Source: an uncultured Poribacteria bacterium
GTDB taxonomy: Bacteria > Poribacteria > WGA-4E > WGA-3G
NCBI GenBank assembly: GCA_951828515.1
Contig: OX639992.1
Location: 4,380,217 to 4,444,216, forward strand
Reading direction: 5' to 3'
Length of the DNA stretch: 64,000 nt
The position numbers and the translations under genes are program-made. Below, one piece after another: positions 27 through 34,156 of this stretch (positions are counted from its first letter, which is position 1; each line of letters opens with the position of its first letter). The notes under the pieces were generated by a model, which did no database searches, was not told where the DNA came from, and saw only the letters and a list, made by a program, of their open reading frames with translations.

Positions 27-55
27 TTGACATTCAGTCTAAAATGTTGTATAAT
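27..55 (+). promoter_or_regulatory. Consensus sigma-70 promoter of tnpB copy 1
   Basis: TTGACA at 27-32 and TATAAT at 50-55 are separated by exactly 17 bp, a perfect match to the housekeeping consensus. The same arrangement occurs before tnpB copy 2. Transcription would start near 62 and include the structured leader. Confidence 0.85.
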
Positions 56-69
56 AGTAATATCAAGTT

Positions 70-123
70 GGCAGACATAATGAGCGTTACCGCTTGGTAA
101 CGTGTCTGCCTACCCACTCATTA
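70..123 (+). promoter_or_regulatory. Structured tnpB leader (stem-loop plus long-range pairing)
   Basis: An outer 8-bp stem (70-77 with 103-110) encloses a 7-bp hairpin (85-91 with 96-102, loop GCTT). The 7 nt between outer and inner stems, TAATGAG (78-84), are an exact reverse complement of CTCATTA at 117-123, giving a pseudoknot or an alternative fold. In copy 2 the outer stem is the same, the inner stem has a compensatory change, and the 7-mers differ at four positions yet remain fully complementary. At the DNA level it could equally be the hairpin-bearing left end that TnpA recognises. The structure is seen in the sequence; its role is inferred. Confidence 0.75.
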
Positions 124-152
124 GGGGTTAAAGACTTGAGACTTGACAGACC

Positions 153-1268
153 ATGAAAACCTATAAATACCGGCTTGGGAAACAATCGAACACAATCCGC
201 ATTGGGAATTTGCTTGACGATATGTGGCAGGTGCATGTGTATTTCCATAAGTGGCAACGCCAGCGATATAAAGACGGACTGCCGTATGTCAACTTTGAGG
301 GTATGTGCGACCACGTGAAACTTATGAAAGACACGACACACCCGCATTGGAAAGCATTACCGTCTCAAGCAATCCAACAAGAGTTGAAACGTATCCATTT
401 GGCATACGACCGGTTTTTCAAAAAACTTGGCGGCAGACCGAAAATCAAAAAGAGACACAAGTTTAAGTCTATCACTTTTCCCGGACACGCAGGCTGGTTT
501 CTGAAAAACAATCGTATCACCCTTACATTCCGCAAGTGGAACAACGGCAAATGGCGATTTGATAAAGTCCCTTACACTTTTCACAAACACCGGCAATGGC
601 ACGGAAACCGAATCAGTCGTATCACGATAAAGCGTGATACTTGTGGTGTCTATTGGCTTTGCATAACAACAACCTACACAGATTTTAGACCGCTGCCGAC
701 AACAGGTCAAAGCGTTGGGGCAGACTTCGGCATGAAAGACGCATACTTGACCCTTAGCACGGGTGAGAAAAAACAGCACCCACAACCTTTGAAGCACTCC
801 TTGAACAAACTTCGGTCTCTCAATAAGGCATTGAGCCGTAAGCAAAAAGGTTCTAACGGCTGGTGGCGGTGTGTGAGACACCTCGCACGTCTCTATCGGA
901 AAATCAGCAACCAACGCAAAGACTTTCATTGGCAACTCGCGAGCGAACTGTGTAAGAAGTTTGATACGATTGCGATTGAAACTTTGAACCTTGATGGCAT
1001 GAAACGCTTGTGGGGCCGTAAAGTCTCCGACCTTGCGTTCTATCAGTTTGTTGAGATATTGCAGTATAAGTGTAGAAAACATAAGCGTCTTTTGAAACAA
1101 GTCGATCAATGGACTGCGACAACGAAACCGTGTAGTGAGTGTGGTTTTCATAACGAAAATCTAACGCTAAAAGATAGGCAGTGGACGTGTCCTGACTGTG
1201 GTGCGCACCACGATCGGGACATCAACGCTGCGATAAACATATTGTGGGCAGGGATAGCCATCACTTGA
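153..1268 (+). CDS. tnpB: TnpB, RNA-guided endonuclease of IS605-type element (copy 1)
   Basis: This 371-residue protein has the TnpB/OrfB architecture. An N-terminal helical and beta-barrel part is followed by a split RuvC nuclease with GADFGMKDAY (first Asp near residue 190), AIETLNLDGM (Glu near 276) and HDRDINAAIN (last Asp near 356). A four-cysteine zinc finger, CSEC and CPDC, lies before the last motif. All three acidic residues are present, so the nuclease should be active. TnpB proteins cut DNA guided by an omega-RNA made from the 3' end of their own element, favouring its retention. There is no good Shine-Dalgarno before the ATG; the structured leader sits 30 nt upstream. It is clearly homologous to the copy at 32899, with many substitutions, so the duplication is not recent. 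Confidence 0.95.
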   Translation: MKTYKYRLGKQSNTIRIGNLLDDMWQVHVYFHKWQRQRYKDGLPYVNFEGMCDHVKLMKDTTHPHWKALPSQAIQQELKRIHLAYDRFFKKLGGRPKIKKRHKFKSITFPGHAGWFLKNNRITLTFRKWNNGKWRFDKVPYTFHKHRQWHGNRISRITIKRDTCGVYWLCITTTYTDFRPLPTTGQSVGADFGMKDAYLTLSTGEKKQHPQPLKHSLNKLRSLNKALSRKQKGSNGWWRCVRHLARLYRKISNQRKDFHWQLASELCKKFDTIAIETLNLDGMKRLWGRKVSDLAFYQFVEILQYKCRKHKRLLKQVDQWTATTKPCSECGFHNENLTLKDRQWTCPDCGAHHDRDINAAINILWAGIAIT

Positions 1269-1394
1269 CGATATGCCTTGTCTCTGACAAGGGAAATGCC
1301 CGCAGGTGGAGCGACAGTTAGACGGTGGACTCTTTGAGAAAACCGCAGTCGCGACGAAGCCGAAGCCCAACCCTTTAGGTTTGGGTGCTATCAC
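1243..1394 (+). ncRNA. Predicted omega-RNA scaffold of tnpB copy 1
   Basis: The scaffold begins inside the end of tnpB: TGTGGGCA (1243-1250) pairs with TGCCCGCA (1297-1304). A perfect 7-bp hairpin, CCTTGTC/GACAAGG (1276-1292), lies just past the stop. A block around 1340-1365 is nearly identical in copy 2, and a terminal hairpin with a TTTA-containing loop ends just before GCTATCAC. Each helix is kept in copy 2 with different bases. By analogy with known omega-RNAs the guide is the flanking sequence from 1395 onward (about 16-20 nt). The RNA itself is inferred from structure and position. Confidence 0.75.
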
Positions 1395-1590
1395 GGATTT
1401 CCGTTAGCGATTGGGGTATAGAAAATCACGAGTCGTTTATTCCAAAGCCCGAGCGGGGTGATATGTGTGTAGAAATGCTCCAGGCGGTGGATTAGGCCAT
1501 GTAATAAAATGCTGATCAGCACTTGACACCTGTCACGTGAGTGTATAGAATACCTTCAACAACTCTGAATCTGCAGAAGGAGAAAAGATC
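1395..1590. other. Gap with palindromic repeat and promoter
   Basis: Besides the inferred guide region at 1395-1414, this gap holds a GC-rich palindrome-containing repeat near 1434-1473 (GCCCGAGCGGGGTGATAT). Its relatives are at 3030-3055, 54704-54735 and 54755-54785. The promoter of the next gene completes it. Confidence 0.5.
1523..1551 (+). promoter_or_regulatory. Sigma-70 promoter upstream of dioxygenase gene
   Basis: TTGACA at 1523-1528 and TAGAAT at 1546-1551 have a 17-bp spacer. They lie 40 bp before a start codon with a good ribosome binding site. Confidence 0.7.
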
Positions 1591-32688: not shown

Positions 32689-32715
32689 CGCCATTTTATC
32701 GATCTTCCGTCAAGA

Positions 32716-32735
32716 CCCCATGCTTTAGCTTGGGG
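32716..32735 (+). repeat. IS605-type right-end hairpin remnant
   Basis: CCCCA and TGGGG arms enclose GC-TTTA-GC, the hairpin style that ends IS605/IS1341 elements. It lies 55 bp left of tnpB copy 2, and no second transposase is attached, so it may be what is left of another element. Confidence 0.45.
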
Positions 32736-32772
32736 ATGTAGACGGCGTATGGGTTTGTTGTATCAAAAAGAT

Positions 32773-32801
32773 TTGACATTGACCTAAAATTGTGGTATAA
32801 T
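32773..32801 (+). promoter_or_regulatory. Consensus sigma-70 promoter of tnpB copy 2
   Basis: TTGACA (32773-32778) and TATAAT (32796-32801) with a 17-bp spacer, as in copy 1. Confidence 0.85.
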
Positions 32802-32815
32802 TAAAGTATCAAGTT

Positions 32816-32869
32816 GGCAGACATGTATAGCGCTACCGCTTGGTAGCGTGTCTGCCTACCCACTATACA
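32816..32869 (+). promoter_or_regulatory. Structured tnpB leader, copy 2
   Basis: Outer stem 32816-32823 with 32849-32856 is identical to copy 1. The inner stem CGCTACC/GGTAGCG differs from copy 1 by a paired T-A to C-G change. TGTATAG (32824-32830) is the exact reverse complement of CTATACA (32863-32869), matching the position but not the sequence of the copy 1 pairing. Confidence 0.75.
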
Positions 32870-32898
32870 GGGGTTAAAGACTTGAGACTTGATAGACC

Positions 32899-34014
32899 AT
32901 GAAAACCTATAACTACCCGCTTGGGAAACAATCGAATACGATCCGCATTGGCAACTTGCTTGACGATATGTGGCAAGTGCATGATTACTTCCATAGGTGG
33001 CAAGACCAAAGATACAAAGACGGGTTGCCCTATGCGAACTATCATGCTATGTCCGCACACGTCAAAGAACTCAAGAAAACGACACACCCGCATTGGAATG
33101 CGTTGCCGAGCCAAGCGATCCAACAAGAGTTGAAACGTATTGATGAAGCCTACGTCCGCTTTTTCAAGAAGTTAGGCGGTAAACCGAGACGTAAGCCGAG
33201 ACATAAGTTCAAGTCTATTACCTTTACACAAGCGGGTTATGCGTTAGAAGATAATCGTATTACGATAACCTTTCGTGAGTGGAATGCCAGAAAACAGATT
33301 TGGTCTTTTAGGCGTATTCCGTTCACATTTCATAAACACCGTGAGTTCCACGGAACTATCGCACGTATCACCCTCAAACGTGATAATTGCGGTGGCTATT
33401 GGATTTGTATAGTGACAGATCATGCAGATACCAAAGAACTGTCAGCAACAGGTCAGAGAGTTGGGGCAGACTTCGGCATGAAAGACGCATACTTGACGCT
33501 GAGCACGAGTGAGAAAATACAACACCCACAACCTTTGAAACACTCCTTGAAGAAACTTCGGTCTCTCAACAAAGCACTTTCTCGTAAAGTTAAAGGTTCT
33601 AACGGCTGGTGGCGGTGTGTAAGAACAATCGCGCGTCTGTATCGGAAAATCAGCAACCAACGTAAAGACTTTCACTGGCAACTCGCAAGTAAACTCTGTA
33701 AACGCTTTGATACGATAGTCCTTGAAACGTTGAACCTTGACGGTATGAAACGCTTGTGGGGACGCAAAGTCTCTGACCTTGCGTTTTACCAGTTTGTTGA
33801 GATATTGAAGTATAAGTGTCAAAAACATAAGCGTCAGTTCCTTCAAGTTGGTCAGTGGACTGCGACGACAAAACCGTGTAGTGAGTGTGGTTTTCACAAC
33901 GAAACCCTTACGCTCTCTGATAGGCAGTGGACATGTCCGGCATGTGGTTCACACCACAACAGGGACATCAACGCTGCCATAAACATTTTGCGGGCAGGGA
34001 TAGCCACTCTGTAA
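32899..34014 (+). CDS. tnpB: TnpB, RNA-guided endonuclease of IS605-type element (copy 2)
   Basis: A 371-residue protein, the same length as copy 1. RuvC motifs are intact: GADFGMKDAYL, IVLETLNLDGM and HHNRDINAAIN; the zinc finger is CSEC with CPAC. Differences from copy 1 cluster in the region of residues 45-60 and 105-185 (for example RRKPRHKFKS against KIKKRHKFKS and a different substrate-facing loop), so the two may differ in recognition. As with copy 1 no clear Shine-Dalgarno precedes the ATG. Both copies look functional, which suggests continuing selection rather than recent copying. Confidence 0.95.
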   Translation: MKTYNYPLGKQSNTIRIGNLLDDMWQVHDYFHRWQDQRYKDGLPYANYHAMSAHVKELKKTTHPHWNALPSQAIQQELKRIDEAYVRFFKKLGGKPRRKPRHKFKSITFTQAGYALEDNRITITFREWNARKQIWSFRRIPFTFHKHREFHGTIARITLKRDNCGGYWICIVTDHADTKELSATGQRVGADFGMKDAYLTLSTSEKIQHPQPLKHSLKKLRSLNKALSRKVKGSNGWWRCVRTIARLYRKISNQRKDFHWQLASKLCKRFDTIVLETLNLDGMKRLWGRKVSDLAFYQFVEILKYKCQKHKRQFLQVGQWTATTKPCSECGFHNETLTLSDRQWTCPACGSHHNRDINAAINILRAGIATL

Positions 34015-34156
34015 ATGTGATATACCTGAGACTCGCTTCAGAGTTTCAGGGAATTGCCCGCGGGTGGAGCGAAAATAAGACGGTCATCTCTTAGAGAAAA
34101 CCGCAGTCGCGACGAAGCCGAAGTTTCCCCTGCCTTTAGGTAGTGGGTGCTATCAC
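33989..34156 (+). ncRNA. Predicted omega-RNA scaffold of tnpB copy 2
   Basis: TGCGGGCA (33989-33996) inside the tnpB end pairs with TGCCCGC (34055-34061). A hairpin CCTGA-g-ACTC / GAGT-t-TCAGG starts at 34025. The last hairpin, CCC-CTGCC-TTTA-GGTAG-t-GGG, precedes GCTATCAC. Compared with copy 1 the bases change but the pairs hold. The guide would start at 34157 and run into a dispersed repeat. Confidence 0.75.

What the first reader, a model, noticed from the sequence alone, without database searches (positions are those of the whole stretch)
1243..1394. omega-RNA helices covary between copies and overlap the tnpB coding end
Three helices are preserved with different bases: the closing helix that starts inside tnpB (TGTGGGCA/TGCCCGCA against TGCGGGCA/TGCCCGC), the hairpin after the stop (CCTTGTC/GACAAGG against CCTGA-g-ACTC/GAGT-t-TCAGG), and the terminal hairpin before GCTATCAC. 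The block between them is nearly identical. A scaffold that begins inside the coding region limits how tnpB codons can change.
Basis: partly seen in the sequence, partly recalled or inferred. Interest (0 to 1): 0.6.

Follow-up and report, generated by a model that had tools for sequence, protein, structure and literature searches.

The report
Transposon guide RNA plus leader RNA
The end of this jumping-gene nuclease also encodes the RNA that guides it, in a known type of fold supported here by matching mutations, and the same message begins with a second, apparently undescribed folded RNA that looks like a switch for how much nuclease is made.

Summary
Window 1241-1394 and 33987-34156 are right ends of two tnpB-only IS200/IS605-type elements in a Candidatus Poribacteria genome. 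In 42 aligned right ends 95.2% of cells pair and 22 of 44 pairs change on both sides; a tree-based count gives 91 pair-to-pair double changes against about 2 in controls. It adds two hairpins; one spans the tnpB stop codon and couples a valine codon to the stop (GTC only with TGA). One clean empty site puts the guide right after TATCAC. The omegaRNA is a variant of a known kind.

Outside the coordinates, the same transcripts start with a ~90-nt leader (61-152; 32807-32898): four helices and a pseudoknot with even stronger covariation (96.9% paired; 180 double changes against 3). The mRNA's first bases can pair with either of two repeats, the second at or over the start codon. No Rfam match. 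It fits a translation switch for tnpB. No RNA or activity was measured.

The parts
153..1268 (+). tnpB copy 1 (371 aa)
   Evidence: acidic motif residues in GADFG, IETLNL, DRDINAA and two zinc-finger Cys pairs
1241..1394 (+). omegaRNA scaffold of copy 1 (row of alignment A1); guide follows from 1395
1243..1304 (+). stem 1 (1243-1250 with 1297-1304); 5' strand lies in tnpB codons 364-366
1253..1392 (+). pseudoknot GATAGC 1253-1258 with GCTATC 1387-1392
   Evidence: 100% paired in 42; covaries with GATACC/GGTATC
1259..1270 (+). hairpin over the tnpB stop codon (H2a); one A.C mismatch in this copy
1276..1292 (+). hypervariable hairpin after the stop (H2b)
1311..1352 (+). stem 2 (1311-1315 with 1348-1352) enclosing stem 3 (1321-1326 with 1342-1346 and the inner hairpin 1329-1338)
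1365..1385 (+). stem 4, terminal hairpin with UUUA loop
   Evidence: 99.1% paired, four pairs with both-side changes
1395..1410 (+). predicted guide (first 16 bases after TATCAC)
   Evidence: guide length of about 16 nt from PMC8612924 passages
27..55 (+). promoter TTGACA (27-32) and TATAAT (50-55) of copy 1
61..152 (+). structured leader of copy 1: P1 61-68 with repeat 1 134-141 or repeat 2 141-148; P2 70-77/103-110; P3 85-91/96-102; P4 112-115/125-128; pseudoknot 78-84/117-123
32696..32745 (+). left end of copy 2: flank TTATC 32696-32700, then hairpin 32715-32736 inside the stem CCGTC/GACGG
32773..32801 (+). promoter of copy 2, TTGACA (32773-32778) and TATAAT (32796-32801)
32807..32898 (+). 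structured leader of copy 2: P1 32807-32814 with repeat 1 32880-32887 or repeat 2 32887-32894; pseudoknot 32824-32830/32863-32869
32899..34014 (+). tnpB copy 2 (371 aa)
33987..34156 (+). omegaRNA scaffold of copy 2; pseudoknot 33999-34004/34149-34154; guide follows from 34157
   Evidence: copy 2 is in the 65-row alignment; its near twins L004 and L005 stand for it in A1

Best explanation
The two right ends encode the omegaRNA (reRNA) of tnpB-only IS200/IS605-type (IS1341-like) elements. [quoted passage not shown] TnpB with this RNA should cut the empty donor site next to its left-flank motif (TTTAC or TTATC) and so help keep the element in place. Shown: the fold by covariation, the codon-stop coupling, the boundary and one empty site. 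Inferred from the known family: processing, complex formation, cleavage, and the motif's role as TAM. In addition the same mRNA starts with a separate folded leader; its structure and its two alternative partners for the 5' end are shown by covariation, while translational control is inferred.
For: Covariation with controls; pseudoknot pairs consistent in 84 of 84 TATCAC right ends, two of them judged by eye; one-to-one order of stems with ISDra2; TnpB families and solved homologues; synonymous depletion at codons 364-370 and GTC-TGA 19, GTT-TAA 17, GTT-TGA 6, GTC-TAA 0, with 10 of 14 changes simultaneous on a tree; clean empty site in six relatives with TTTAC kept.
Against: No RNA data. Copy 1 folds no better than shuffles on its own and has an A.C mismatch in the stop-codon hairpin and a U-G in stem 1. 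Stem 1's innermost pair fails in 16 of 42. A second empty-site test was not clean. ISDra2 was reported to avoid overlap of essential parts.
Confidence: 0.93

Rival explanations
1. Right end: the helices act only as single-stranded DNA hairpins for a TnpA transposase, not as RNA.
For: The terminal hairpin resembles the left-end hairpin, and subterminal hairpins are TnpA sites in this family (passage of PMC10278001).
Against: Stems 1-3, the pseudoknot and the stop-codon hairpin are not subterminal; the order equals the ISDra2 omegaRNA. Sense-strand G-U cells outnumber A-C cells (63 to 37), though only mildly because of one stem-1 position.
Confidence: 0.05
2. Leader (outside the coordinates), my preferred reading: a bistable translation switch. 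P1 with repeat 1 closes the folded, pseudoknotted domain and leaves the start free; P1 with repeat 2 blocks the start. TnpB or its RNP may favour the closed form as feedback.
For: Both pairings covary; 88 of 106 leaders have both partners against 14 of 2120 shuffles, and in L058 and L109 the second covers the start codon (L118, L029 and L030 were added by eye). The two window copies choose different partners in the minimum-energy fold. Energies near equal. SD-like 4-mer in only 2 of 103 against 21 of 42 other ORFs. Promoter places P1 at the 5' end.
Against: No effector and no expression data. Repeats 1 and 2 are tandem with a 7-nt period in most copies, so slippage or conversion could keep them alike; 18 of 106 fail the strict test.
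Confidence: 0.5
3. Leader as an ordinary riboswitch for a small molecule.
For: Compact fold with junction, pseudoknot and two alternative 3' partners of P1.
Against: No Rfam match; tied almost wholly to a mobile nuclease gene, not to metabolic genes.
Confidence: 0.15
4. Leader as a structure that protects or stabilises the mRNA or binds TnpB without switching.
For: It sits at the expected transcript 5' end.
Against: Does not explain why the second repeat keeps complementarity to P1 or covers the start codon in two divergent forms.
Confidence: 0.2
5. Leader as a DNA element or a self-cleaving ribozyme of HDV-like strand order.
For: The strand order P2-PK-P3-P3'-P2'-PK' is that of HDV ribozymes (recalled).
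Against: Sense-strand G-U 95 against A-C 23 speaks for RNA; 4-nt P3 loops leave no room for the HDV P1.1 pairs (recalled), and P4 encloses one pseudoknot strand.
Confidence: 0.08

Closest known systems
ISDra2 TnpB omegaRNA/reRNA (PMC8612924 and PMC10097598, passages read)
   Same: 3' end of tnpB plus right end; stem 1, pseudoknot of the last scaffold bases with the stem-1 loop, stems 2 and 3, stem 4 with UUUA loop; guide from flanking DNA.
   Different: Here tnpB stops inside the stem-1 loop (about 25 bases of overlap) instead of near the end; two extra hairpins, one over the stop codon; left-flank motif TTTAC/TTATC instead of TTGAT; no tnpA next to it.
Covariance models of typical and derived TnpB omegaRNAs (PMC10278001, passages read)
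   Same: 3' stem-loop within 10 nt of the guide; TnpB mRNA as source of omegaRNA.
   Different: That survey reports only the 3' stem-loop conserved across its typical clade; within this single family the whole scaffold covaries.
IS200 tnpA and ISPpu9 transposase 5' UTR structures (PMC12594629, PMC8450116; search listing and start of abstract only)
   Same: A structured 5' UTR of an insertion-sequence gene; for ISPpu9 the title names it as a regulator.
   Different: Those are transposase genes; here tnpB, with a pseudoknot and two alternative partners for the mRNA's first bases.

Membership tests
TnpB (IS200/IS605) | OrfB_IS605 and Cas12f1-like TNB domains over curated cut-offs | tested here: met
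   both copies; guided_TnpB subfamily
TnpB (IS200/IS605) | RuvC acidic residues and zinc finger in the expected motifs | tested here: met
   (motif roles recalled)
ISDra2-type omegaRNA | Overlap with the 3' end of tnpB | tested here: met
   codons 364-371 and the stop
ISDra2-type omegaRNA | Stem 1, stems 2-3 and stem 4 with UUUA loop, in that order | tested here: met
ISDra2-type omegaRNA | Pseudoknot of scaffold 3' end with stem-1 loop | tested here: met
ISDra2-type omegaRNA | Guide taken from flanking DNA right after the right end; motif left of the empty site | tested here: met
   for one copy (L002) in six relatives; not clean for L039
ISDra2-type omegaRNA | RNA bound to TnpB and guided cleavage | not testable with these tools
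   no expression data or assay
IS605 (tnpA plus tnpB) | tnpA next to tnpB | tested here: not met
   six Y1_Tnp matches, none near the tnpB copies by coordinates; hence tnpB-only
Known RNA family (Rfam 15), for leader and right end | Covariance-model match | tested here: not met
   (window, gathering) 0; (five loci, E up to 10) 0
HDV-like ribozyme, for the leader | P1.1 pairing between the P3 loop and the strand after P1 (recalled) | tested here: not met
   by reading alignment A2: 4-nt P3 loops without a partner
Translation-controlling leader | Two mutually exclusive pairings, one over the start region | tested here: met
Translation-controlling leader | Expression changes with the fold | not testable with these tools
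   no expression data

The most novel reading that the evidence does not exclude
The leader is a new class of bacterial regulatory RNA: a pseudoknotted, bistable translation switch carried by RNA-guided nuclease genes across Poribacteria, through which TnpB or its omegaRNP limits its own production. The cassette has begun to move to other genes, for instance on a phage-like contig in front of an intron-type endonuclease (L222).
Probability: 0.35. Interest if true: 0.8.

Novelty: new variant of a known kind. Interest (0 to 1): 0.58.

Why it matters
How dozens of tnpB copies in one genome (46 matches here) keep nuclease dose tolerable is, as far as I know, open (recalled). A conserved leader with two alternative folds, present in all 36 searched genomes of the genus, makes that directly testable with a reporter. 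The right end gives a fully covarying ISDra2-type omegaRNA set, and a clear case where a stop codon and a sense codon are tied together by a guide RNA's hairpin.

Tried and rejected
Rejected or led nowhere: known Rfam families; single-sequence folding as evidence for the right end; an HDV-like ribozyme for the leader. The exact leader pattern finds only Poribacteria among the 80 listed of 94 genome contigs matches and the copy-2 leader has no match in plasmids or phages, but such searches reach close relatives only. A first pattern for the hairpin after the stop was misplaced and was redone on 50 of 65 distinct ends, 15 not parsed. In one search, 13 of 99 leader sites seemed to lack tnpB: two were script errors and do have it (L193, L217), six lack room, L133 is too short to tell, four truly lack it (L146, L156, L184, L222). 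The Pfam scan of the L222 protein found nothing. An internal promoter as cause of the constrained codons 298-312 was looked for by eye and not found.

Dropped before counts: 10 of 119 loci without an extractable right end; 43 of 109 right ends outside family A, one duplicate, 23 more by thinning to 42. Copy 2 itself (L006) was removed by the thinning. Leaders: 8 loci failed an earlier filter, 6 of them were put back by hand and one other (L013) was lost; 60 of 103 entered A2, the most divergent and insert-bearing ones left out. The A2 structure was drawn from these sequences, so the slide control leans its way; the re-dealt tree control is less exposed to that. The tree counts may overstate independent events where elements have recombined.

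Full report
WHAT IS THERE. The window lies in a 5.85-Mb single-contig genome. Named genomes with the same leader are Candidatus Poribacteria (80 of 80 listed, of 94 matches). The two tnpB genes, 153-1268 and 32899-34014, are two of 46 tnpB-like matches in this genome. Both are TnpB by Pfam and NCBIfam; copy 1 aligns with solved TnpB chains such as 8bf8 (4.5e-38). Six Y1 transposase matches exist in the genome, none near a tnpB copy by coordinates, so these are tnpB-only elements.

CHECK OF THE OBSERVATION. I collected 119 tnpB loci from this and other genomes of the phylum (57 of 84 genomes have a match at 1e-60) and extracted 109 right ends. Of these, 66 are close family-A ends (at least 71% TnpB identity, TATCAC end, 150-190 nt), 65 distinct; 42 remained after thinning at 93% identity. 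With the pseudoknot included 95.2% of 1802 cells pair; 22 of 44 pairs change on both sides (shuffles 14.4, 0 of 500 as high); sliding the partner by 1-3 columns drops pairing to 34-44%. On a tree built from the coding sequences without their last codons, 91 branch changes turn one standard pair into another on both sides, against a mean of 2.0 and a maximum of 5 in 10 re-dealt controls (39 pairs).

THE FOLD. The cryo-EM paper on ISDra2 describes stem 1, a pseudoknot between the last scaffold bases and the stem-1 loop, stems 2 and 3a/3b, and a UUUA tetraloop, and says that the omegaRNA overlaps the 3' end of tnpB (passages). My correspondence is by order and topology. The pseudoknot strands co-vary: GATAGC with GCTATC, GATACC with GGTATC, never crossed in 84 TATCAC ends (two judged by eye). 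Short relatives such as L100 and L106 lack the two extra hairpins.

CODON LIMITS. In 77 full-length copies synonymous variation at codons 364-370 is 0.37 of that expected for the same amino acids; Gly-367 is GGG and Ile-368 is ATA in every copy that has that residue. In 42 copies of the GTY-NNN-TRA type, GTC goes with TGA (19), GTT with TAA (17) or, as a G-U pair, with TGA (6), and GTC with TAA never occurs (Fisher 4.8e-7, without correction for relatedness). On the tree 10 of 14 changes hit both sites at once. A stretch at codons 298-312 is constrained more strongly still (0.21-0.25 in its best 7-codon windows) and is unexplained.

BOUNDARY AND GUIDE. Sequences diverge right after TATCAC. Joining the flanks of copy L002 gives a query that the six best relatives match through the junction TTTAC|AAACCCC with no gap at it. 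Left flanks read TTATC in 29, TTTAC in 19 and other TTAC forms in 13 of 61 copies. A second test with L039 was not clean: relatives carry about 200 extra bases between the two flanks. Flanks after TATCAC in the window begin GGATTTCCGTTAGCGA and TCCTCTTTGTAGGAGG.

A SECOND STRUCTURED RNA. The same transcripts begin with a leader of about 90 nt. In 60 aligned leaders (of 103 extracted) four helices plus a pseudoknot pair in 96.9% of cells, 27 of 34 pairs change on both sides (shuffles 16.0, 0 of 500 as high), and slid versions pair in 24-41%. The pseudoknot helix is 98.1% paired, with all four Watson-Crick types at two column pairs and three at two others. The tree gives 180 pair-to-pair double changes against 3.1 in controls (42 taxa). 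Sense-strand G-U cells (95) exceed A-C cells (23). A promoter-like pair scores at least 9 (of 12 matches plus up to 0.5 for spacing) in 99 of 101 leaders, against 63 of 505 shuffles, and its -10 ends 5-6 nt before P1 in 91 of 101, so P1 should be the mRNA's first bases (no start site was measured).

TWO PARTNERS FOR P1. P1 can pair with either of two direct repeats before the start codon (96.2% and 94.6% of cells). Under a strict 7-mer test 88 of 106 leaders have both partners, against 14 of 2120 shuffles; in L058 and L109, whose leaders differ in most other bases, the second repeat covers the start codon. The window's two copies use different repeats in their minimum-energy folds. The two states differ by 0.4 kcal/mol on average, the pseudoknot not counted. 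Only 2 of 103 leaders have an SD-like 4-mer, against 21 of 42 other ORFs of the window. From this I infer a translation switch; its trigger is unknown, TnpB itself being my first guess.

DISTRIBUTION. A model of the leader (R1) has 40 matches in this genome: 35 lie within 800 nt upstream of a tnpB match on the same strand, three precede decayed tnpB by eye, two are weak relics before other genes. 36 of 46 tnpB matches have one. In the phylum 46 of 81 genomes have a match at 1e-5: all 36 of the genus and 10 of 45 others. Of 99 exact-pattern sites, 88 have tnpB, 6 have no room, 1 is unclear and 4 lack it. One of the four, on an IMG/VR contig that also carries a complete element (L221), precedes a 123-aa protein with an intron-like endonuclease match (phrog_12324, 6.6e-9 over 33 residues).

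LITERATURE. Searches of the held open library list no paper on a structured leader of tnpB; one search finds 10 papers holding both 'TnpB' and 'riboswitch', none with either word in title or abstract. I read passages only of PMC10278001, PMC10097598 and PMC8612924. So 'not in print' means these searches.

VERDICT. The finding is a true omegaRNA of a known type, with a neat extra at the stop codon. The larger surprise is at the other end of the message.

Noticed in passing
window 61-152 and 32807-32898: Structured, pseudoknotted leader RNA upstream of tnpB with two alternative partners for its 5' strand; treated in the report although outside the finding's coordinates.
   Followed up: yes
window 1044-1088 (tnpB codons 298-312): Strongest synonymous constraint of the gene (obs/exp 0.21-0.25 in 7-codon windows); the same bases are kept exactly in L110, whose TnpB is only 57% identical. 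Cause unknown.
   Followed up: partly
L222:2514-2612 (IMG/VR contig): The leader stands in front of an intron-like endonuclease gene instead of tnpB; the same contig carries a complete tnpB element (L221).
   Followed up: partly
L146, L184, L156, L123, L124: Leader or leader relics in front of non-tnpB genes (short membrane proteins, a methyltransferase, a secreted repeat protein); decayed elements or reuse.
   Followed up: partly
L085, L091, L105: TnpB 76-79% identical to copy 1 but with a different, shorter right end ending CTTGAC: mosaic elements that swapped their omegaRNA.
   Followed up: no
L017-L020: A relative about 38-40% identical with the same leader type, whose stop codon lies just before the terminal hairpin, so nearly the whole scaffold would be inside the coding region.
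   Followed up: no
leaders of L002, L085, L107, L108, L111, L117: P2 comes in two forms (GGCAG/CTGCC and GGAAACCG/CGGTTTCC); these leaders mix one arm of each, which breaks two P2 pairs.
   Followed up: no
leaders of L026, L060, L064, L067, L076, L078, L090; right ends of L032, L060, L063: Insert of about 26 nt with its own hairpins in leader P3, and long inserts in the right end (235-263 nt), showing which parts tolerate extra sequence.
   Followed up: no
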